Below the pieces are notes generated by a model. It was not told where the DNA came from. It did not search any database and saw nothing but the letters and a program-made list of their open reading frames with translations. From the IMG/VR virus record IMGVR_UViG_3300043773_000405, positions 1 to 24,547 of that record: 24,547 nt of DNA; one strand, given 5' to 3'. The position numbers were made by a program, and so were the translations under genes. How positions within the stretch are numbered: the stretch's first letter is position 1; the number at the start of each line of letters is the position of its first letter. The DNA comes from a virus. This document shows positions 658 through 24,547 of this stretch, one piece after another.

Positions 658-1319
658 CCAAAGGTTGAATCGGGTTCCAGAGCAATATAATACTTCAGAT
701 TGTACTTGGTATTACTGAATTGTGACAAAAGTTTTTCTGATACAACAACATCATAAGCACCAGGAATAATCTTAATATTTTCTACTTTAAAGTTGAAGGT
801 AAAGTCTTTATCGGTATCACCAACCACGATGGAATATTCGTTGGAAGTATCATTCTTCTTATCACGAACAACAAGACGAATCACACCTGCCTCACCAACT
901 GCAGATAGGTCAGGAAGTTGATAGACCGCTGCTGCCTTGACCAATTTCTCTAGAGAAGCACTCTCAAGTTGGAAACAAACATCTTTAGAAGGAAGTTGAA
1001 TCTCTTTATCAGGAGGAGAAATAATTACATTCGGGTCAGCATAGAAATACTTTACCCGCCGCTTACCTTCACGAATGGTGATGTAAGAATCTTCAGTAAA
1101 GTCCAGATCAGGGTCTTGATGAAGACTTAAACCATTCAGGAACTGATTGAGGTCATAAACTGCAAAGTCACGAGGAAACTCTTCAGTAATATCTGCTTCA
1201 GCAAGAATATTTTTAGCAACAGAAATAGTGCGAAGACGAGTCCCTTGCTTTACCAGAATCGAATTATTAATTCCAGCGAAGTTCTTGAGAATAGTCAGAG
1301 AGTTATCAGAGAGTTTCAT
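654..1319 (-). CDS. 45: Sliding clamp, DNA polymerase accessory protein gp45
   Basis: A 221-residue protein (T4 gp45 is 228) beginning MKLSDNSLTILKNFAGIN, aligning with the T4 start MKLSKDTTALLKNFATIN. It keeps the YDLNQFLNGLSL segment (T4 YDLNGFLGILSL), the TFNFKVENIKI segment and the terminal YIALEPDS (T4 YVVALEADS). The trimeric ring tethers DNA polymerase to the template. In T4 it also acts as the mobile activator of late transcription with gp55 and gp33. The frame opens earlier, with a TTG at 1346 and an ATG at 1340, but the T4 alignment favours the ATG at 1319. No clear Shine-Dalgarno is seen at any of the three. The start region nearly abuts the DUF3310-like stop at 1343. Confidence 0.95.
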   Translation of the reverse strand: MKLSDNSLTILKNFAGINNSILVKQGTRLRTISVAKNILAEADITEEFPRDFAVYDLNQFLNGLSLHQDPDLDFTEDSYITIREGKRRVKYFYADPNVIISPPDKEIQLPSKDVCFQLESASLEKLVKAAAVYQLPDLSAVGEAGVIRLVVRDKKNDTSNEYSIVVGDTDKDFTFNFKVENIKIIPGAYDVVVSEKLLSQFSNTKYNLKYYIALEPDSTFG

Positions 1320-1342
1320 AGTTTTGTTTTGGAGTTTCATAA

Positions 1343-1705
1343 TCAACGGAATTCAGTAAGACCATTATCTTTACGGGTATAGTGCCCGTCGAAATGGAGG
1401 AGAAGCATAGCATAATGAATGACTTTGAGGAGGTCACGCTTATTGCGTCCATCTTTATCACCATAGCGGCTACCATACTTGAGAATATTTGCCTGACAGA
1501 AAGGCACTGCCAAGTCTTTTGCTGCCATCAAATCAATCGTTTGAATATCATTTTGATTGTGACCACAATAGTGACTGCCATAAGTGCTGGTCACATAATC
1601 TTCAATATCTTTAAAAATTTTATCTTCGTTGTATTTCCAGAGATGATTTGTGTTTTCAGTCATAGTAATAGTAAAGGTTGAATCACTCATAAAGGGAAGG
1701 CACAT
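1343..1705 (-). CDS. DUF3310-like protein (T7 gp1.7 nucleotide-kinase family relative)
   Basis: The core SHYCGHNQNDIQTIDLMAA, CQANILKYGSRYGDKDGRNK and DLLKVIHYAMLLLHF follows the DUF3310 pattern (HY...IEVID...F..GN.IKYL.R.G.KD...DL.K...YL), common in phages. As I recall, the family includes T7 gp1.7, a dGMP/dTMP kinase; activity here is only a guess. I chose the ATG at 1705 (120 residues) because GGGGAAGG lies 5 bases upstream. The frame opens with a TTG at 1720, and an ATG at 1690 is also possible but has no ribosome site. The chosen start codon sits in the loop of a hairpin (1694-1717), so translation may be structure-controlled. The gene lies between the CobS-like gene and gp45. Confidence 0.75.
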   Translation of the reverse strand: MCLPFMSDSTFTITMTENTNHLWKYNEDKIFKDIEDYVTSTYGSHYCGHNQNDIQTIDLMAAKDLAVPFCQANILKYGSRYGDKDGRNKRDLLKVIHYAMLLLHFDGHYTRKDNGLTEFR

Positions 1706-1717
1706 TTTTACCTTCCC
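1694..1717 (-). terminator. Hairpin after CobS-like gene, covering the next start codon
   Basis: On the minus strand GGGAAGG and CCTTCCC form a perfect 7-bp stem around a 10-base loop, followed by only TTTATG. It lies just past the CobS-like stop at 1726, so it could be a weak terminator. The Shine-Dalgarno-like GGGAAGG is one arm and an ATG (1705-1703) is in the loop, so a translational switch is the alternative. Confidence 0.5.
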
Positions 1718-1725
1718 CAATTATA

Positions 1726-2838
1726 TCAGAAAGGGGCGGGTTGGTCAACTTCCTCAGTAGGAAGTTTGAAGTCAACATCAATCTTGTCATAAAGTTCCAA
1801 AAACGATTGTTTGGTCTCATCATCAAAACGATTGACACATACTTGGATTGCTTTTGCCTTATCGTTAAAGATGCTATAAGCACGGACGATATGAACCAAG
1901 CGACGAGTGCTAATGATTTCCTCAATACCACCATCATAGAAGGTTTTACGGATCACGTCCGCCCAATCAACCAGACGCTTACAGAAGTCGCGGTCTTCCA
2001 CACCAAGGTCCAGAGCGATGCCCTCAAGGATCTTCTGCTCCACAGAGGGGGCAGGATAAAACTGCTCAAAGGTCACAGGAAAACGCTCAAGGAATGCTTC
2101 ATTGAGCACATTGGTGCCGATGAAGCGACCATCATCAGAACCCTTACCCTTGGTGTTAGCGGTGGCAACCACATTGAAACCAGCAGCAGGTTTCACAAAA
2201 CGACCGATCTTTTTCAGGAAAACACCCTTACCTTCAAGCACAGACTGGAGACACAGAATCTTGTTAGAAGCAAGGTCAATCTCATCCAGAAGCAGAATCG
2301 CCCCCCGCTCCAGTGCTTCAATCACGGGACCATTGTGCCAAGCAGTTTCACCATTCACAAGACGGAAACCACCAATCAGGTCATCCTCGTCGGTTTCAAT
2401 CGTGATGTTAACACGAATCAGTTCACGCTTTAGTTGAGCACAAGCTTGCTCCACGCCGAAAGTTTTACCGTTACCAGAAAGACCCGTAATAAATGTAGGA
2501 TAAAAGATACGGGACTGAATAATTTTTTTAATATCGTTAAAGTTACCAAACTTGACGAAGGTATCATCTTTATCAGGAATAAGGTTTTGTTCAGCAGAAG
2601 GAATAACAGCGGGAGAACTAAAAGAACGCTCAATCTCTTCAACACGCTCCTGAGTAACTTCCAGGTTCCAACGACCACGAGCAGTTTTGTAGTTCTCCAG
2701 GCGACGAGTAACAGTTTGATAGTTCAAACCACGAGAAGCACAAAAACCTTTGAGGTCACCAGAAGTAATTTCAGAACCATAAAGTTCTTTGATACTATCA
2801 AAAAGGGCTTCGTCGTTCACAGAGGATTTGCGAGGCAT
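1726..2838 (-). CDS. cobS: CobS/MoxR-like AAA+ ATPase
   Basis: A 370-residue AAA+ ATPase. Residues 1-60 form a helical, basic region with a helix-turn-helix look (LKGFCASRGLNYQTVTRRLE). The ATPase core has Walker A GLSGNGKT (119-126), the GGFRLVNGETAWHNGP segment, Walker B ILLLDEID (181-188), sensor-1 ATANT (225-229) and an ERF arginine region (251-253). This is the MoxR/CobS branch, whose members act as hexameric motors paired with a VWA-domain partner; the CobT-like gene just upstream provides that partner. Cyanophage copies are usually annotated as cobS (the cobaltochelatase subunit), but no CobN-like subunit is visible, so a general remodelling role is equally plausible. It has its own promoter-like box (2872-2877). 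Confidence 0.9.
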   Translation of the reverse strand: MPRKSSVNDEALFDSIKELYGSEITSGDLKGFCASRGLNYQTVTRRLENYKTARGRWNLEVTQERVEEIERSFSSPAVIPSAEQNLIPDKDDTFVKFGNFNDIKKIIQSRIFYPTFITGLSGNGKTFGVEQACAQLKRELIRVNITIETDEDDLIGGFRLVNGETAWHNGPVIEALERGAILLLDEIDLASNKILCLQSVLEGKGVFLKKIGRFVKPAAGFNVVATANTKGKGSDDGRFIGTNVLNEAFLERFPVTFEQFYPAPSVEQKILEGIALDLGVEDRDFCKRLVDWADVIRKTFYDGGIEEIISTRRLVHIVRAYSIFNDKAKAIQVCVNRFDDETKQSFLELYDKIDVDFKLPTEEVDQPAPF

Positions 2839-2871
2839 AATGTAGTTAGGTGGTTTTGTTTAACTAAAGTA

Positions 2872-2877
2872 ATTATA
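2872..2877 (-). promoter_or_regulatory. Candidate sigma70-type -10 box for CobS-like gene
   Basis: The minus strand reads TGTATAATTA, with a perfect TATAAT 34 bases before the CobS-like ATG. It begins a few bases after the T-tract of the terminator at 2882-2906. A poor TTTAAC lies 16 bases further upstream, inside the terminator loop. A host-type early promoter is likely, but the -35 is weak. Confidence 0.45.
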
Positions 2878-2881
2878 CAAG

Positions 2882-2906
2882 AAAAAGGGGGCAGTTAAAT
2901 GCCCCC
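2882..2906 (-). terminator. Rho-independent terminator
   Basis: Minus strand: GGGGGC, 8-base loop, GCCCCC, then TTTTTC. It lies 22 bases after the stop of the short acidic peptide gene and separates it from the CobS-like gene. Confidence 0.85.
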
Positions 2907-2927
2907 CTGTGACAGTTTGGAAAGTGG

Positions 2928-3095
2928 TTACTTAATTCCCTTTTTTGCCGATGCCTTTACAGGTGTTGGTCTTTCAAAGGGTGTTCCTTCCTGAACCAAT
3001 CCATCACCATCACGATCTCTTGCATTTGGATTAAATCCAGATTCTGGTTCTGGAGATGGTGCTGGTTCTTGAAATAAGTCTGTAAATCTGCTCAT
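2928..3095 (-). CDS. Short peptide with EF-hand-like DRDGDGLVQEGTPFERP motif
   Basis: A 55-residue protein starting MSRFTDLFQEPAPSPEPE and ending in a basic tail (KASAKKGIK). The middle, NPNARDRDGDGLVQEGTPFERP-like segment, carries D-x-D-x-D-G, the core of an EF-hand/dockerin-type calcium loop. I recall the RDxDGDGLVQEGTPFERP phrase from other marine T4-like phage proteins, so it is probably a shared short module. I chose the ATG at 3095, not the upstream TTG at 3128, because a GATAAATA late box (3119-3126) and GGAAGAG lie between them. A strong terminator follows, so this is a single-gene late unit. Function is unknown; its late expression suggests a virion or assembly role. Confidence 0.65.
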   Translation of the reverse strand: MSRFTDLFQEPAPSPEPESGFNPNARDRDGDGLVQEGTPFERPTPVKASAKKGIK

Positions 3096-3118
3096 TGTTG
3101 AAATGAAACTCTTCCAAA

Positions 3119-3126
3119 TATTTATC
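3119..3126 (-). promoter_or_regulatory. T4-type late promoter box GATAAATA
   Basis: Minus strand GATAAATA, one base from the T4 late consensus TATAAATA, 23 bases before the ATG of the 55-residue gene. It overlaps the stop codon of the CobT-like gene. Confidence 0.6.
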
Positions 3127-5275
3127 AAGCAACAAGTTCCATAAACTCTCCGAGAATCTTTTTGTTCATTTTTTTGGATTTTAGACTCTTGACAAAAGCA
3201 GACTTGATTTGAGTCTTGGTTGCATCTTCAGCAACTTCAAACTCTGTGTCTTGAGAAAGGGCAGTGGCAGAAAGACCAAAATAAGAATGATAACCAGACT
3301 TTTTCAAGGTAAATGCCTTTTCTTTTTTCCAAGCACTCATCGCTTTTTCAAGGTCTGGACCATAATAACCACAATATCGACGAATAAAGTTACCAGCATC
3401 ACGACTTTCCAGAACACGAATACCAATGAAGTTAATGTCAGCAAACTTCTCACGCAGATTGCGAAGAAAAACATCAGTCATTTGATGCCATTCGCAGTCT
3501 AGAGAATAAGTGCTCCCAGTTTTACGGTCACGCAAGAATGAACCAAAACCAATACCAGCGGTTCCCATAAAAGGACCATCTTCCCATTGACGCTTCACTT
3601 CACGGTGATACTTAATACCACACGCTTCACCATCAGTCAGAATCACACACTGAACTTTCTGAAGTTTATTCTCCTTCTGGAACTTGGGTAGAATCTGATG
3701 AAGAGAAATCATTGCCTCATTCAAAGGAGTTCCTGAGAGAGAAAGACCCAAAGGAATCTGATAAGAAGTGTAGCAGTTACGCCCAAACGAATAAGCAAGG
3801 CGGAAGATGTTCTTCATCTGCTCCTCCAGATTCTTACCATTCACTTGACTGGTCAGCAGGTTCATCATTGAAAACCATTCACCAACTTGAATCAAACCAT
3901 CTTTCTTCTGATAAGCAAGTTCACGCATATTTGCCTTACCATTTTCGTCATAAGAAACCAAAGGATAGTCAGTCGTGAAAGCATAAACCTCAAACGGGAT
4001 CGCAACTTTCTTACAGAACCAAACAAGGTTGAAGAGTTGCTTAACCGTATCCAGCATCACATCACACATTGAACCAGACCAGTCCAGAACAAACACTAGA
4101 CCGTGATTCTTGCCGTTAGCGAGTGTCGTGACCTTCTTGAACAGGTCTTCGTTGTATTTGTAAGTGTGAAGTTTGGAGCAGTCCAGAACACCAGTGCGGG
4201 CAGTCGTAGCACGGGCATAGGAGTCTGCTGCCTTACGACACTCAAACTCTTTAACCAAATAGTTGACTTCTTTCTGAGCAGAACGCTTGAACTCTACAAA
4301 CTGTCGATCAACTTCACCAAAAATATCTTCGTGCTTATATTCACGATCTACAATAAAAGTATCCCAGGTATTTTTACAATTAGAATGAATCTGAGCATTC
4401 GGGACAATTACTTTTTTCAAATCAAGTTTAGGCAGTTCTAGATAAACATTTTCGGGACCACTATTATTGACGAGTTCTTTGAGTGCCTCTTCCAAGGAAT
4501 CCATCGTCTTCACTTCTGGTTCTTCATTCTTCTCGCCACCCCGTTCTTGAGTGGTTTCACCCATTTCTGGGGTGGTTTCACTAGAAGCAGAACCTTCAGA
4601 ATCATTAGACTCAGGTTGGTCGTTCTCACCTTCTTGTTGGTCACTAAAATCAGAAGCAGGTTGATTGTCAGCACCACTCTGCTGAGACTCAAGATTATCC
4701 AGAGAAATCTTGGTTTCTTCCTGTTGCTTGTGCTTACAATACTTATAGAGTTCTTCTGCAGCAATCAGAACATCAGCAAAGGTTTCTGTATCGGCAATCA
4801 GATTGATGATTTCAGTCTCTTCACCGCGCTCAATAGGAATATCAATATAGTTTCCAATTTTGAACCACAGGTTCGCACGGTCGGCAAGATTATAAGTTTC
4901 CAGTTTATCATCACCAATCTGGAAGAAATCATCATCGGCAAGTTCCCGATAACCAGCATAGAAGGTCTTAGCGAGACCAGCATAACGACGCTTCATCAGT
5001 TTCTCAATACGGGCATCTTCCACCACATTCACAAACTGCGGGGGAACTTTTACCTTCTCCAACCAATCTTCATCAGGCGTATAGAGAGCGTGTCCGACCT
5101 CATGCCCCACCAGAAGGTCATACACAGTGTTACTTGCCTTCTCCCACATAGGCAGAGTCAGCACACGGGTATGAACATTAAAGCAGGCAGTCTCCACCTT
5201 CTTGTGCTCAACCACAAGGTCTTCGGTGGCAAGAAGTTTAGCAAGTTGGGACTTGATTTCGTGGCGGACGGTCAT
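3125..5275 (-). CDS. cobT: CobT-like VWA protein with N-terminal HExxH zincin-like domain
   Basis: A 716-residue protein. The N-terminal part has LLVGHEVGHALYTPDEDW (HExxH at 58-62) and NVVEDARIEKLMKRR (E86 as a possible third zinc ligand), which also resembles the EQARVEA segment of CobT. Residues 190-260 are a strongly acidic, Q/S/E-rich linker typical of CobT-type proteins. The C-terminal VWA domain has the MIDAS motif DWSGS (398-402), a GTPLNE threonine motif (515-520) and ILTDGE (545-550). VWA proteins of this type couple a MoxR/CobS AAA+ motor to a target. The CobS-like ATPase is encoded two genes downstream, with a short late gene between. Whether the zincin part cleaves anything is inference. 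The gene is long and cleanly open, and is flanked by terminators. Confidence 0.9.
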   Translation of the reverse strand: MTVRHEIKSQLAKLLATEDLVVEHKKVETACFNVHTRVLTLPMWEKASNTVYDLLVGHEVGHALYTPDEDWLEKVKVPPQFVNVVEDARIEKLMKRRYAGLAKTFYAGYRELADDDFFQIGDDKLETYNLADRANLWFKIGNYIDIPIERGEETEIINLIADTETFADVLIAAEELYKYCKHKQQEETKISLDNLESQQSGADNQPASDFSDQQEGENDQPESNDSEGSASSETTPEMGETTQERGGEKNEEPEVKTMDSLEEALKELVNNSGPENVYLELPKLDLKKVIVPNAQIHSNCKNTWDTFIVDREYKHEDIFGEVDRQFVEFKRSAQKEVNYLVKEFECRKAADSYARATTARTGVLDCSKLHTYKYNEDLFKKVTTLANGKNHGLVFVLDWSGSMCDVMLDTVKQLFNLVWFCKKVAIPFEVYAFTTDYPLVSYDENGKANMRELAYQKKDGLIQVGEWFSMMNLLTSQVNGKNLEEQMKNIFRLAYSFGRNCYTSYQIPLGLSLSGTPLNEAMISLHQILPKFQKENKLQKVQCVILTDGEACGIKYHREVKRQWEDGPFMGTAGIGFGSFLRDRKTGSTYSLDCEWHQMTDVFLRNLREKFADINFIGIRVLESRDAGNFIRRYCGYYGPDLEKAMSAWKKEKAFTLKKSGYHSYFGLSATALSQDTEFEVAEDATKTQIKSAFVKSLKSKKMNKKILGEFMELVA

Positions 5276-5884: not shown

Positions 5885-6031
5885 TTAGTTATTTATAAAA
5901 TAAGAAGCGTCCCCGTGTTGGAGACGCTTCTTGAGTGCCTGGCGACGTGCCTTTGCTTGTCGGAGTGCTTGCGGTTTCAGTTTCCGCTTCTGCTCCTTCT
6001 TAGAATGGTGATAGCGGTTGGGGACTTGCAT
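5885..6031 (-). CDS. 48-residue highly basic protein
   Basis: The frame runs from the ATG at 6031-6029 to the TAA at 5887-5885. The ATG shares its A with the stop of the GIY-YIG gene (TAATG overlap). The product begins MQVPNRYHHSKKEQKRKLKP and is dominated by Lys/Arg/Gln helices (QALRQAKARRQALKKRL), suggesting nucleic-acid binding. The stop-codon end overlaps both a 10-bp hairpin and the late promoter of the next gene. It fills the only otherwise empty stretch in this region, and its codon use resembles the neighbouring conserved genes more than the AT-rich endonuclease. Function is unknown. Confidence 0.5.
   Translation of the reverse strand: MQVPNRYHHSKKEQKRKLKPQALRQAKARRQALKKRLQHGDASYFINN
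5890..5897 (-). promoter_or_regulatory. T4-type late promoter TATAAATA
   Basis: A perfect TATAAATA on the minus strand, 19 bases before the ATG of the putative head protein and inside the 3' end of the 48-residue frame. Confidence 0.8.
5902..5932 (-). terminator. Strong 10-bp hairpin, probable terminator inside the small basic gene
   Basis: AAGAAGCGTC and GACGCTTCTT are perfect inverted repeats around an 11-base loop. On the minus strand the hairpin is followed by TTATTTTAT, a broken U-tract, then the TATAAATA box. A terminator for upstream transcripts that ends just before the late start is the simplest reading. The hairpin also codes for the C-terminal end of the 48-residue protein. Confidence 0.55.
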
Positions 6032-6687
6032 TACTCTTGTGATTGTGAGGACAGATTACTATCTGTATTTACGGAAGTCAAGGAGTCCAGTTGAGAAAGT
6101 GTCCTATTCTTATATCTGTTTAGTGCTGACTGTCTCATTTTTTCTTTTGCTTCTGGTGAGTGGGTTTTACCTTTCATAGGATTATTCTCACTCATTTTTA
6201 AACTCATATTTTTTTTAAACTCATCACTTTGAGTTTTACCATACATTCCATTTTTTTCTCCAGAATTTTTTCTTCTGGGATCACCTTTCATTTTTTCAAT
6301 AGTTTCTTGGGAATGTTTTTTTCCCAACATAGGTGGCATCTTTTCTTTTAATTTTTCTATTGTTTCTGGGGAGTGTTTCCAACCAGAATTTATAGTCATC
6401 CCTCCACCACCAAGAGAAACATTTAATAAATTAGAATTTTCAGAAATATACTTTATTTCCAAATTTTCAATATAAGAAGCATCTTCACTTTGCTCTAAAA
6501 TAGATAATTCAAAATTTTCAATTCCATATTTTCTAATAGAGTTGTAAAATTTAGGACAATCATTTTTCTTCTTTTCAGTTTTATAAGCATACTGATGCTT
6601 TTTCCACCTTTCTTCTGGTTTAAGAGAAGTTATACCAATGTATTTTTGTCCCGTAATTTTATTTTCAATACAATATAAACTATACAC
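6031..6687 (-). CDS. Free-standing GIY-YIG homing endonuclease (Seg-like)
   Basis: A 218-residue protein starting from GTG. The GIY-YIG nuclease domain occupies about residues 1-95: SLYCIENKITGQKYIGIT at the front, an Arg in EERWKKH and a catalytic-type Glu in IENLEIKYI. Four NUMOD3-type DNA-binding repeats follow (HSPETIEKLKEKM, HSQETIEKMKG, QSDEFKKNMS, HSPEAKEKMRQSA), each after a GK/GW turn, as in I-TevI and T4 Seg proteins. It lies just downstream of gp46 and has its own TATAAATA 27 bases before the start. It is more AT-rich than its neighbours. It would cut a related phage's DNA to spread itself; its target site is unknown, although the adjacent gp46 gene is a usual choice. Confidence 0.92.
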   Translation of the reverse strand: MYSLYCIENKITGQKYIGITSLKPEERWKKHQYAYKTEKKKNDCPKFYNSIRKYGIENFELSILEQSEDASYIENLEIKYISENSNLLNVSLGGGGMTINSGWKHSPETIEKLKEKMPPMLGKKHSQETIEKMKGDPRRKNSGEKNGMYGKTQSDEFKKNMSLKMSENNPMKGKTHSPEAKEKMRQSALNRYKNRTLSQLDSLTSVNTDSNLSSQSQE

Positions 6688-9736: not shown

Positions 9737-10156
9737 TTAAGAGTATTTTTCCAAGTATAGCACAGCAGATCTGAGTAAGTCAAGATTATCAGAAAAATTG
9801 CCTAATCCGCGATTACATTTACAACAAAGCAATCCTCTCACCTTTCCATTATCGTGATTATGATCTACTGCCAATTTTTTCCCAGACACACATTCATTTT
9901 TACATATGGCACAAACATTTTTTTGTTCAGAAAGAATATCATTATATTCCTCCAAAGAAATACCATAAGTCCTACCTATAAGTCTGGAATGCCACTCATC
10001 TTTATTATTTTGATAATACTCCGCCTGCTTATCTTTTCTCCTTTGCCATTGCTGTTTATATTTTTCTGGATTATTTTTTCTCCATTTAGCAAGTCTTTCT
10101 TTATCACGCATTTTTTTTCTGCGGTCTGCTTCACCAGGAGGTAATTTTTTAGGCAT
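9737..10156 (-). CDS. HNH / endonuclease VII-type homing endonuclease
   Basis: A 139-residue protein. A strongly basic N-terminal half (MPKKLPPGEADRRKKMRDKE and following) leads to a His-Me-finger domain: CAICKNECVSGKKLAVDHNH, then GKVRGLLCCKCNRGLGNF. This gives two CxxC zinc pairs and the DHNH active site, the fold of T4 endonuclease VII (gp49). T4 gp49 resolves Holliday junctions, but a short basic-tailed copy wedged between gp55 and gp47 fits a free-standing homing endonuclease better. It has its own TATAAATA 22 bases upstream and is AT-rich. Confidence 0.88.
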   Translation of the reverse strand: MPKKLPPGEADRRKKMRDKERLAKWRKNNPEKYKQQWQRRKDKQAEYYQNNKDEWHSRLIGRTYGISLEEYNDILSEQKNVCAICKNECVSGKKLAVDHNHDNGKVRGLLCCKCNRGLGNFSDNLDLLRSAVLYLEKYS

Positions 10157-22396: not shown

Positions 22397-23611
22397 CTAT
22401 CCGTATTCCCACATATGAGAACGGTCTCCATATTCGTCAACATTCCATATTTCGGTACTTTCTAATTGACTCTGAGCATTTGCAAATACCCATCTATCAC
22501 CTGTTTCAATATCTACAGTTACTTCCATATCATCTAAACCATCAACAATGAATCCAAATGGAGACATATCTTGTTCAATTTGATTCTTTTGTTCTTCATA
22601 AATTCTCTTACGAACATCGTTGTCCGTCATTTCTTTAAAATAGTCCTGAGCAACTAACCAAGAAAAAATTACAAGGCACATTGCTAGGTCATCATTACAA
22701 CCTTCTTCTGCCTCAAATGAATTACCTCTCTGAGCAAATGTTGTAAGTTCGCTAATAATCTCATAATCACTTGTAAGTAGTTTATCGTCTTCTAATAAAG
22801 TTTTGAGGTTAGAACATCCCAACTTTTTAACTGCAGCAGTCATTCTCACACCAAGTTGAGATTTTTTACCACTAAATCCAGAACCTACAATCTGACCTGC
22901 ACGACCTCTCATCGCACACATCAAAACATTATCATACTCCAAATCAAAGTGTAAAATACTTGCTACCTGGTCACCAATATCATTGACCTCAATTAATAAC
23001 CAAGCATCGTTATAACCTTTTGCTACTTCGTGAATGATACTTGGGAATAGCATCGGTTTAATTTCATTATTTCGATATTTTGCTACTACTTTATATGGGA
23101 AGTTTGTAATATCAAAGACTACAAATGCAGAATAGTCATTACCCAAACCACGGGCAACATCGACCGTGATTAGATAATTATTCTCTTCTTTTGGGTGCTC
23201 ATACACATCCAGTCCAGCATTTCTTTTAATCGGATCGTCATAAACAAGATTGCGAAGTTTTGATGCATTAATAAGAGTATTTACAGAACCTAAAAATTCG
23301 CAGTTATGAGATACTATATTATTTGAATAGTATAAATTATCTTCACCAACATCCAATAAATCGTAAAGATATATTCCTTCTTCTACTATTTCATTATATA
23401 CAATTTTTTTTTCTTGTAAGACATCATCCACTTTGATTGTGGATGCTTTAATTTTTTCGGACCCAAACGAATGATTTTCGGAGCATTTTATTTCCGTTCC
23501 ATCCTCAAAAATTATCCAATGATAAAATGGTTTATAAACTTTCTGAATACCTGAGAAAGATTTAAACCCAGTGGGGGTTTTTACTAATAAATCTTTATTA
23601 AGTTTAAACAT
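22397..23611 (-). CDS. 17: Split intein C-half (about 103 aa) fused to terminase gp17 nuclease domain
   Basis: A 404-residue protein. Residues 1-103 are an intein C-fragment: MFKLNKDLLVKTPTGFKSFS, a block-B-like SENH (44-47), block F LYDLLDVGEDNLYYS and block G NNIVSHN with terminal His102-Asn103, then Cys104 as the +1 nucleophile. It resembles, from memory, the split TerL intein described from Ace Lake. From CEFLGSVNTL onward it is T4-type terminase: LITVDVARGLGNDYSAFVVFD (T4 D401 region), LLIEVNDIGDQV (E458 region) and AEEGCNDDLAMCLVIFSWL (D542 region), so the nuclease site is complete. Protein trans-splicing to the N-half should rebuild gp17. The ATG overlaps the GIY-YIG stop by 8 bases and AAAGGAG lies 10 bases upstream. 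Confidence 0.95.
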   Translation of the reverse strand: MFKLNKDLLVKTPTGFKSFSGIQKVYKPFYHWIIFEDGTEIKCSENHSFGSEKIKASTIKVDDVLQEKKIVYNEIVEEGIYLYDLLDVGEDNLYYSNNIVSHNCEFLGSVNTLINASKLRNLVYDDPIKRNAGLDVYEHPKEENNYLITVDVARGLGNDYSAFVVFDITNFPYKVVAKYRNNEIKPMLFPSIIHEVAKGYNDAWLLIEVNDIGDQVASILHFDLEYDNVLMCAMRGRAGQIVGSGFSGKKSQLGVRMTAAVKKLGCSNLKTLLEDDKLLTSDYEIISELTTFAQRGNSFEAEEGCNDDLAMCLVIFSWLVAQDYFKEMTDNDVRKRIYEEQKNQIEQDMSPFGFIVDGLDDMEVTVDIETGDRWVFANAQSQLESTEIWNVDEYGDRSHMWEYG

Positions 23612-24173
23612 TTTTCCAACACTCCTTTAAAACTATTCTTTTAAGTCCTTGTGATGTTAAATTATACTTATCAGCATATTCTTTACAAAATGCTTGGATG
23701 TATGACATTTTTTTTCCATTTTTCATAATCAATCCTACCAATGGTAAATCTGGTTTTGTATCAAATAAAATGCGTATCTCCTTTACTTGGTCATCGGTAA
23801 GTTTTCTACTAAAAACTCTACCTTTCCTAACTTGCTTCATTTTTGAGATTGTTTCTTCCGAGAAGCAATTTTTCATACCTTTATTCCAGGGGATGTTCCC
23901 TTTATCTACACCACCTATTCCAGTTCTATTGTAATTATCAAAACCTTCTCCTCCTGTGGATTTATTCCATCCATTTTTATAGGTATCAAATTGTTTTATA
24001 TAATTAATTTCCAAATTTTTTGCATCTTCGGCAATATTGGTTTCTTCTACAATCTCAAAAATATGTTGAGGTTTGCTATTTTTATGGTCCCTTTTTCTGG
24101 TGTTAGGGTCCTGAGTCTGACCAACATATTTAATATTATCGTCCAAATCTTTAAGTAAGTAGATATAATACAT
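23604..24173 (-). CDS. Free-standing GIY-YIG homing endonuclease inside the split terminase locus
   Basis: A 189-residue protein. The nuclease domain has YYIYLLKDLDDNIKYVGQT (GIY-YIG core), an Arg in TRKRDHK and a catalytic-type Glu in AKNLEINYIKQFD. A NUMOD3-like segment follows (GMKNCFSEETISKMKQVRKG), then a helical DNA-binding tail (LTDDQVKEIRILF, LTSQGLKRIVLKE). It is encoded between the two intein halves, in the same direction, with its own TATAAATA only 10 bases before the ATG. It most likely cuts intein-free terminase genes and spreads the whole split arrangement. It is AT-rich. Confidence 0.93.
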   Translation of the reverse strand: MYYIYLLKDLDDNIKYVGQTQDPNTRKRDHKNSKPQHIFEIVEETNIAEDAKNLEINYIKQFDTYKNGWNKSTGGEGFDNYNRTGIGGVDKGNIPWNKGMKNCFSEETISKMKQVRKGRVFSRKLTDDQVKEIRILFDTKPDLPLVGLIMKNGKKMSYIQAFCKEYADKYNLTSQGLKRIVLKECWKNV

Positions 24174-24182
24174 TTTTATTAT

Positions 24183-24190
24183 TATTTATA
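24183..24190 (-). promoter_or_regulatory. T4-type late promoter TATAAATA in the terminase break
   Basis: A perfect TATAAATA on the minus strand within the 28-base gap between the terminase N-half and the GIY-YIG gene, 9 bases before its ATG. The very short leader leaves no room for a good ribosome site. Confidence 0.7.
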
Positions 24191-24208
24191 ATCCAAAAAA
24201 CTCACATT
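24186..24208 (-). other. Relic-like copy of the intein-free terminase junction
   Basis: Read on the minus strand from 24208, one frame off the N-half, the codons GAA TGT GAG TTT TTT GGA TTA TAA give E-C-E-F-F-G-L-stop. The rebuilt terminase junction reads E|C-E-F-L-G-S (N-half ends ...VEFE, C-half starts CEFLGS). Five of six residues from E to G agree across the splice point. It overlaps the last codons and stop of the N-half and the late promoter. Confidence 0.5.
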
Positions 24209-24547
24209 CGTTGATAGAGTTCTTCCATAGAAATATTATGAGTGTTACCTTTATCATCAATTATTTCTATTTTAGTTTCTCCACTTAGACACTCAAACTC
24301 AACCTTAAACTGTTGTTCACTGGTGTTTGCAATCGTCTGCTCCTTCCAGGCTTCGTCTCTACCAGGCACCTCAGACCAATGGACATCTGTAGGCACATAT
24401 TCGTTCTTGCCCTTCTCGGCGTCGTGCCACATACGGTAGAAGTGATTCATACCGCGTGGAGTAGATACAATGATTACCTTCGTGCTTTGTCCAGAAGAAA
24501 TAGTAGGATAAACAGAGGCAAAGAAGTCATCAGCAATGTGATTCGGG
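24202..24547 (-). CDS. 17: Terminase gp17 ATPase part (5' truncated by window) fused to split intein N-half
   Basis: The frame is open from the window edge (upper coordinate 24547) to the TGA at 24204-24202. Visible extein: PNHIADDFFASVYPTISSG, STKVIIVSTPRGMNHFYRMW and NTSEQQFKVEFE. This matches the T4 gp17 ATPase end (PVISSGRRSKIIITTTPNGLNHFYDIW ... LAQFRQEHT). It is followed by Cys1 and a 29-residue intein N-fragment, CLSGETKIEIIDDKGN then THNISMEELYQRM. Such a short N-half is the atypical split class. The ATG at 24450 is internal (it aligns inside the ATPase domain), not a start. Trans-splicing with the C-half would join E to CEFLGS at the ATPase-nuclease linker. Confidence 0.93.
   Translation of the reverse strand, partial: PNHIADDFFASVYPTISSGQSTKVIIVSTPRGMNHFYRMWHDAEKGKNEYVPTDVHWSEVPGRDEAWKEQTIANTSEQQFKVEFECLSGETKIEIIDDKGNTHNISMEELYQRM

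What the first reader, a model, noticed from the sequence alone, without database searches (positions are those of the whole stretch)
22397..24547. Terminase large subunit broken by an atypical split intein with a GIY-YIG endonuclease gene in the break
The gp17 reading frame is interrupted after ...VEFE by Cys1 and a 29-residue intein N-fragment ending in a stop. It resumes in a second gene with a 103-residue intein C-fragment ending SHN, followed by C-E-F-L-G-S. Between them lies a complete GIY-YIG gene on the same strand. All intein splice residues (Cys1, block-B-like SENH, penultimate His, Asn, Cys+1) and the three nuclease acidic motifs are intact, so trans-splicing should restore packaging. 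Split inteins with free-standing endonucleases ('fractured genes') and the Ace Lake TerL intein are known classes. This appears to be a new member with its presumed mobility gene in place. Because packaging cannot work without splicing, the phage is tied to the element.
Basis: partly seen in the sequence, partly recalled or inferred. Interest (0 to 1): 0.9.

Follow-up and report, generated by a model that had tools for sequence, protein, structure and literature searches.

The report
Split terminase with self-regulating homing gene
In T4-like cyanophages the DNA-packaging motor gene is cut in two by a protein-splicing element that carries its own mobility gene, and next to that gene's promoter sits a copy of the DNA site the mobility enzyme probably targets, which may let the enzyme switch itself off.

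Summary
terL (gp17) of a T4-like cyanophage is broken after VEFE by a 29-residue intein N-fragment, a 189-aa GIY-YIG gene and a 103-residue intein C-fragment ending SHN|CEFLGS. Both fragments match the Cat consensus of atypically split TerL inteins, so the kind is known; GenBank already notes an intein/GIY-YIG terL in Aeromonas phage PX29.

Sampling IMG/VR gave 88 distinct cassettes. Cassettes move between phages (one pair 97% identical with flanks at 68-73%). The endonuclease gene gets lost: 4 of 61 cassettes lack it and the intein stays split. In one lineage HNH replaces GIY-YIG on the same C-terminal region.

New here is a conserved block between IntN and the endonuclease, TGTRARTTYNNNGG-AT-TATAAATA. 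It resembles the first 14 bases of the uninterrupted terL site (CEFLG) and runs into a T4-type late promoter. It is in 57 of 57 endonuclease-bearing and 0 of 4 endonuclease-less cassettes and persists through the HNH swap. This is the layout of the I-TevI operator of phage T4. I infer that the endonuclease binds both its target and this copy and represses its own promoter. Binding and repression are untested.

The parts
24292..24546 (-). TerL (gp17) N-extein, 5' end cut by the contig end
   Evidence: Terminase_6N; phrog_2
24205..24291 (-). IntN, 29 aa, Cys1; atypical split near the N-terminus
   Evidence: CatN, 6dsl_A, E=1.5e-8
24193..24206 (-). Homing-site copy TGTGAGTTTTTTGG (putative operator); overlaps the IntN stop codon
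24183..24190 (-). T4-type late promoter TATAAATA
   Evidence: cyanophage late promoter NATAAATA in PMC2984593 (passage)
23604..24173 (-). GIY-YIG homing endonuclease, 189 aa: catalytic domain about 1-80, putative DNA-binding region about 83-184
23303..23611 (-). IntC, 103 aa, block B SENH, ends SHN
   Evidence: (CatC, 6dsl_B, E=1.2e-51)
22397..23302 (-). TerL C-extein (nuclease domain), begins CEFLGS
   Evidence: Terminase_6C; gp17

Best explanation
This is a mobile split-intein cassette in terL. The two TerL halves are made from separate genes and joined by protein trans-splicing (inferred from intact, constrained residues). The GIY-YIG enzyme cuts intein-free terL at the VEFE|CEFLG site, and repair copies the whole cassette into the cut gene; movement is shown by sequence, cutting is inferred. 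The C-terminal region of the enzyme reads the right-hand half of the target (TGYGARTTYYTNGG; inferred). A copy of that half-site lies directly upstream of the late promoter in front of the endonuclease gene, without the left half. The enzyme is inferred to bind this copy without cutting it and so to repress its own transcription, as I-TevI does in the T4 td intron.
For: Intein identity. Precise empty site. Horizontal movement: L123/L143 cassette 97.2% versus exteins 67.6% and 73.0%; L010/L246 99.9% versus 82.2% and 76.3%; L278/L311 99.5% versus 82.9% and 73.1%. Block: in 57 of 57 endonuclease-bearing and 0 of 4 endonuclease-less distinct cassettes fetched by terL or IntC queries (Fisher p=1.9e-6 if cassettes were independent); in 84 of 84 endonuclease-bearing cassettes overall, 15 of them first fetched by the block pattern. 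A PWM of +1..+14 from 54 intein-free terL junctions ranks the block second of 49,068 positions in the window, behind the real extein; the left half and +15..+28 show nothing there. All 243 occurrences of the exact pattern in the loci held (71 distinct contexts) lie next to IntN, or next to the endonuclease start at a contig end. The six other TATAAATA sites in the window lack it. Over 17 representatives it is more conserved (0.82) than endonuclease third positions (0.54) or the spacer (0.58). Domain swap: L247/L339 carry HNH_3 (E=1.6e-15) on the same C-terminal region (51% over 103 columns), with the block kept and IntC only 41% identical. Precedent: the I-TevI operator matches its homing site at 15 of 20 bases and overlaps a late promoter (PMC2988022, passages).
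Against: Nothing was measured: no splicing, cutting, binding or repression. Part of the block is explained otherwise: positions 3-5 are the IntN stop in 75 of 84 cassettes, and the last part is promoter. Conservation alone is not exceptional: 5.4% of 14-base windows inside the endonuclease coding sequence are as conserved as the 14 bases, and 1.3% of 24-base windows as the whole block. In 15 of 69 cassettes the block matches its own extein at only 9-10 of 14 bases, a level other places in the same cassettes reach. Mismatches between block and own extein fall mainly at codon third positions (35, against 15 at first and 1 at second), which also suits a former coding copy. In L235 and L273 the copy is read in frame as CEFIGL/CEFLGL. 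It scores weakly in L247 (8th of 10,614) and L160 (third). The hairpin that hides the I-TevI start is not seen (z -0.32, 1.36, 0.90). The four endonuclease-less forms lost block and promoter with the gene, so that association may be mechanical.
Confidence: 0.66

Rival explanations
1. The block is a relic: when the endonuclease gene first entered the intein it brought along a short piece of terL (CEFLG) that was next to it, and the copy has no function now.
For: It starts in register with the insertion point; it reads CEFIGL/CEFLGL in frame in L235 and L273; mismatches lie mostly at third codon positions.
Against: It is more conserved than endonuclease third positions across 17 divergent representatives (0.82 versus 0.54), is present in the lineage whose nuclease domain differs, and keeps a fixed distance to the promoter while its distance to the IntN stop varies (offsets -2, +4, -18).
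Confidence: 0.22
2. The block is only the IntN end, stop codon and late-promoter context; the likeness to CEFLG is chance.
For: Stop codon and promoter fix about half of the 24 bases in most cassettes.
Against: Rank 2 of 49,068 against the homing-site PWM, with silent controls; 54 of 69 cassettes match own extein at 11 or more of 14, seen at only 4e-5 of 137,788 other positions, and 20 of 69 at 12 or more, seen at none; the other late promoters of the window lack it; in 7 of 84 cassettes it lies wholly after the stop codon and is still kept.
Confidence: 0.08
3. terL is joined at RNA level (an intron) or works as two separate proteins, and the intein-like ends are dead.
For: ICP1 terL is spliced as RNA (PMC10448857, passages).
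Against: No Rfam intron in the region at E<=1; the only match is a sub-threshold snoRNA hit outside the break. Splice residues are conserved in the cassettes that can be read to the end, and IntC dN/dS is 0.088. Cassettes that lost the endonuclease keep constrained IntC (dN/dS about 0.05-0.14 in the three with amino-acid changes).
Confidence: 0.04

Closest known systems
Cat / AceL-TerL / GOS-TerL atypically split inteins
   Same: Same host gene and class: Cys1 (Ser1 in GOS-TerL), short IntN (29 aa against 25-37), IntC 103 aa (104-115), 83 of 102 aligned IntC residues shared with the CatC stretch (sizes from PMC11766414 passages)
   Different: Here the surrounding locus is read: endonuclease, promoter, homing-site copy, loss forms, movement between phages
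Fractured genes (Dassa 2009; paper not held, recalled)
   Same: Enzyme gene broken by a split intein with a free-standing endonuclease between
   Different: terL host, GIY-YIG enzyme (HNH in one lineage), homing-site copy at a late promoter
Aeromonas phage PX29 gp17A/17B and Vibrio phages VP-1, 1.244, EniLVp02
   Same: terL split intein in the same region; GIY-YIG in PX29 and VP-1 and, by reading only, in 1.244
   Different: PX29 fuses the endonuclease to IntC, VP-1 and 1.244 fuse it to IntN, EniLVp02 has no gene between the halves; no TATAAATA upstream of the endonuclease inside those genes
I-TevI operator in the T4 td intron
   Same: GIY-YIG enzyme, homing-site-like sequence overlapping a late promoter just upstream of its gene (PMC2988022 passages)
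   Different: Intron there, split intein here; only the right half-site is copied here; no proof of binding here

Membership tests
Atypically split TerL intein (Cat/AceL/GOS) | Sequence relation of both halves to the characterised family | tested here: met
Atypically split TerL intein (Cat/AceL/GOS) | Split near the N-terminus, IntN 15-37 aa, IntC about 104-115 aa | tested here: met
   29 and 103 aa; ranges from passages of PMC13014065 and PMC11766414
Atypically split TerL intein (Cat/AceL/GOS) | Residue 1 nucleophile, block B His, penultimate His, Asn, Cys+1 | tested here: met
Atypically split TerL intein (Cat/AceL/GOS) | Trans-splicing activity | not testable with these tools
   needs co-expression
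Fractured gene | Conserved gene broken by a split intein with a free-standing endonuclease gene between | tested here: met
   definition recalled from Dassa 2009 (not held)
GIY-YIG homing endonuclease | GIY-YIG domain with conserved catalytic positions | tested here: met
   Pfam 3e-7; Y5, Y16, G18, R26, E55, N70 invariant in 20 (catalytic role recalled); best fold hits are I-TevI and UvrC GIY-YIG domains, prob 1.00, E 0.017-0.039, none at E<=0.001, model pLDDT 69.6
GIY-YIG homing endonuclease | Spread of the element into empty alleles | tested here: met
   cassette/flank discordance, exact empty site
GIY-YIG homing endonuclease | Cleavage of the empty site | not testable with these tools
   needs purified protein
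I-TevI-type autorepression | Homing-site-like sequence overlapping or abutting the endonuclease's late promoter | tested here: met
I-TevI-type autorepression | Hairpin hiding the endonuclease start on long transcripts | tested here: not met
   three sequences folded
I-TevI-type autorepression | Enzyme binds the operator and lowers expression | not testable with these tools
   needs gel shift and reporter

The most novel reading that the evidence does not exclude
A split-intein homing endonuclease has independently acquired the I-TevI control logic. Its C-terminal region reads the target half-site and a conserved copy of it at its own late promoter, so one protein both spreads the cassette and limits its own dose. 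The copy follows that region even where the nuclease domain is exchanged (GIY-YIG to HNH).
Probability: 0.58. Interest if true: 0.76.

Novelty: new variant of a known kind. Interest (0 to 1): 0.62.

Why it matters
Split inteins with endonuclease genes in the break are known mostly as protein-splicing tools (my impression from the papers listed); how the mobility gene is controlled inside an essential late gene is open. Here 17 natural variants of one short DNA element and one protein region make target recognition and self-repression directly testable. The four endonuclease-less forms show what remains after the mobility gene is lost: a phage packaging gene left as two genes. The HNH/GIY-YIG difference suggests that the target-reading part of a homing enzyme can be inherited separately from its cutting part.

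Tried and rejected
Assembly join: rejected. RNA intron: no Rfam intron at E<=1. I-TevI-like hairpin hiding the endonuclease start: not found in three sequences. Ribosome-site control of the C-half: an SD-like 4-mer lies before IntC in only 6 of 17 and before the endonuclease in 2 of 17 representatives, so I dropped it. The idea that the -1 Glu codon belongs to the block: dropped, since 11 of 84 cassettes lack GA- there. Sequence search of the endonuclease against PDB gave only a weak UvrC GIY-YIG hit (E=0.032) and chance matches. Co-conversion tracts to place the cut: flanks are at background from the first 30 bp in L123/L143, so nothing can be said. Plasmids hold no match to IntC at E<=1e-3. 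A claim that the endonuclease has no relatives elsewhere was dropped: four Klebsiella phage records hold one at 27-28% identity; in the one looked at, FKP14, it is a free-standing gene between tail sheath and tail tube, and one search gave ten contigs whose likeness to the HNH form is confined to a stretch of 22-53 residues. Literature on a homing-site copy in intein endonucleases: the searches showed none in the listings; I saw passages of five papers and no whole text. The library lacks most subscription papers, and Dassa 2009 is not held, so absence from print is not shown.
Full report
OBSERVATION. On the minus strand, terL of a T4-like cyanophage is broken into an N-half (24202-24546) ending VEFE|CLSG...YQRM*, a 189-aa GIY-YIG gene (23604-24173), and a C-half (22397-23611) that opens with a 103-aa IntC ending SHN|CEFLGS. 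The window is the complete IMG/VR record, so the terL start is missing. Contig L082 is identical over 1,845 bp and supplies the N-half from its ATG. The best phage record is Synechococcus phage S-SRM01: C-extein 88.8% in protein, and 78.2% in DNA over 78% of a 4.5-kb query. IntC alone matched 89 of 50,697 phage records at E<=1, all below 60% identity and none of Synechococcus. IntN and IntC match CatN and CatC of PDB 6dsl, the consensus of AceL-TerL and GOS-TerL (PMC11766414 passages).

SAMPLING. Four scans of IMG/VR gave loci of which 236 hold both intein halves; many are overlapping fetches of one contig. They collapse to 88 distinct cassettes. The scans are capped: searches kept the best 80 of 599 or more, 132 and 161 relatives. 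Among the loci then held, each endonuclease match lacking IntN or IntC is cut by a contig or locus end. Distant relatives do exist elsewhere: 27-28% identity in four Klebsiella phage records, free-standing between tail genes in FKP14. Cys1 is in 88 of 88. The tail reads SHN in 81 of 88; L247 ends SHN when read in full, and the other six are cut short. Median dN/dS is 0.088 for IntC (746 pairs) and 0.18 for the endonuclease (836 pairs). One cassette, L132, has an in-frame stop in its endonuclease.

EMPTY SITES AND MOVEMENT. The window's joined exteins align to intein-free L016 at 85.5% over 1,155 bp with no gap across the junction. Among 73 cassettes with enough flank, several pairs have near-identical cassettes in divergent terL genes: L123/L143 97.2% against 67.6% and 73.0%; L010/L246 99.9% against 82.2% and 76.3%; L278/L311 99.5% against 82.9% and 73.1%. 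The opposite is seen too (L003/L089 cassette 64.1%, exteins 79.0% and 78.3%). Chimeric assembly across such a shared cassette is possible for single contigs (L328 looks like a recombinant of L246 and L012), but it too requires the cassette to be shared between different phages.

LOSS OF THE ENDONUCLEASE. Of 61 distinct cassettes found through terL or IntC, 57 carry the endonuclease and 4 do not (L011, L098, L142, L159). In all four the halves stay separate, by a stop codon or a frame change, and IntC remains constrained (dN/dS about 0.05, 0.14 and 0.08 for L098, L142, L159; L011 has no amino-acid change in IntC against L012 or L010).

THE BLOCK. Between IntN and the endonuclease lies TGTRARTTYNNNGG + AT + TATAAATA. 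It is in 57 of 57 endonuclease-bearing and 0 of 4 endonuclease-less cassettes of the set above (Fisher p 1.9e-6, treating related cassettes as independent), and, allowing small changes in the promoter part, in 84 of 84 endonuclease-bearing cassettes of all 88, 15 of which were first fetched by the block itself. Its first 14 bases resemble the terL sequence right of the insertion point. A PWM from 54 intein-free junctions places it second of 49,068 positions in the window, after the real extein; PWMs of the left half and of +15..+28 find nothing there. In 17 representatives (5 of them fetched by the block pattern) the number of better-scoring positions in the own locus is 0 in two, 1 in thirteen, 2 in L160 and 7 in L247. 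Matches to own extein in the 69 cassettes counted are 13 (3), 12 (17), 11 (34), 10 (13) and 9 (2) of 14; elsewhere in the cassettes 11 or more occurs at 4e-5 of 137,788 positions and 12 never, but 9-10 is reached elsewhere. In the loci held, all 243 occurrences of the exact pattern (71 distinct contexts) lie next to IntN (240) or, at a contig start, next to the endonuclease (3); four IntN-linked ones lack an endonuclease start within 120 bases: two contig ends and the two HNH contigs. TATAAATA is the T4 late promoter and NATAAATA that of the cyanomyovirus S-PM2 (PMC2984593 passage). The window has seven, all on the coding strand, against 1.5 expected; only the one at 24183 has the block. Mean pairwise identity over 17 representatives is 0.82 for the 14 bases and 0.99 for the promoter part, against 0.54 at endonuclease third positions and 0.58 in the spacer; 5.4% of 14-base windows in the endonuclease coding sequence are as conserved. 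The offset of the block to the IntN stop varies (-2 in 75, +4 in 7, -18 in 2), but its distance to the promoter does not. The IntN stop codon explains positions 3-5 in 75 of 84.

DOMAIN SWAP. L247, fetched by the block pattern, and L339 carry the same HNH_3 endonuclease (E=1.6e-15), whose residues 83-184 are 51% identical to the window enzyme's C-terminal region, with no reliable similarity in the N-terminal part. Its IntC is only 41% identical to the window's, yet TGTAAATTCACTGGATTATAAATA stands upstream. The shared features are the C-terminal region, the insertion site and the block. That this region binds DNA is inferred from its helical, partly low-confidence model and the precedent of I-TevI; NUMOD3 similarity is sub-threshold in the HNH form (E=0.53) and was not reported for the window's protein.

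MECHANISM. Shown by sequence: split, intact splice residues, constraint, exact empty site, movement, loss, block, different nuclease domains on one C-terminal region. Inferred: trans-splicing, cutting, binding and self-repression. The model follows I-TevI, whose operator matches the homing site at 15 of 20 bases, overlaps a late promoter, is bound as tightly and is cut about 100-fold less (PMC2988022 passages). Here the block copies only the right half-site; the left half, where the cut may lie, is replaced by IntN coding sequence, which would explain why the cassette does not cut itself.

AGAINST. A relic of the founding insertion is the main rival: mismatches sit mostly at third codon positions (35 of 51), and two cassettes read the copy in frame. 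Deletion of the endonuclease may remove the block mechanically. The I-TevI start-hiding hairpin is absent.

KNOWN OR NEW. The intein family and the fractured-gene layout are known. GenBank record GU396103 (PX29) already notes an N-intein and a GIY-YIG plus C-intein in terL. Related isolates vary the layout: endonuclease fused to IntC (PX29), fused to IntN (VP-1; 1.244 by reading), or none (EniLVp02). Not met in the listings and passages seen here are the homing-site copy at a late promoter in a split-intein endonuclease, the HNH form that keeps it, and the endonuclease-less forms.

Noticed in passing
L338 (OQ515481.1) and L354: A Campylobacter Fletchervirus terL is split at the Walker B region (IDE|CVAGDTKITV... 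and ...SHN|CAFID) with the two halves about 25 kb apart on opposite strands: an atypical split intein with separated halves.
   Followed up: partly
L337 (MH363700.1) 816-3032: Vibrio phage VP-1 terL N-half is one open frame of TerL-N, IntN and a GIY-YIG enzyme; the same gene has a contiguous mini-intein at Walker A.
   Followed up: partly
L004:26-1906: A terL N-half with a second, contiguous intein-like insert at Walker A with a LAGLIDADG-like stretch (by reading), upstream of the split intein.
   Followed up: no
window 6031-6687 and 9737-10156: Two more endonuclease-type genes (GIY-YIG with NUMOD3; endonuclease VII type), each just downstream of a TATAAATA (6715, 10178) that by eye lies inside a short inverted repeat.
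   Followed up: no
L328: Upstream flank like L246, downstream flank like L012, cassette shared: a recombinant or an assembly chimera through the cassette.
   Followed up: no
L356 (PP974339.1) 2462-3636: Klebsiella phage FKP14 has two neighbouring homing endonuclease genes between tail sheath and tail tube, downstream of terL; the first is a 27.8% relative of the window's enzyme.
   Followed up: no
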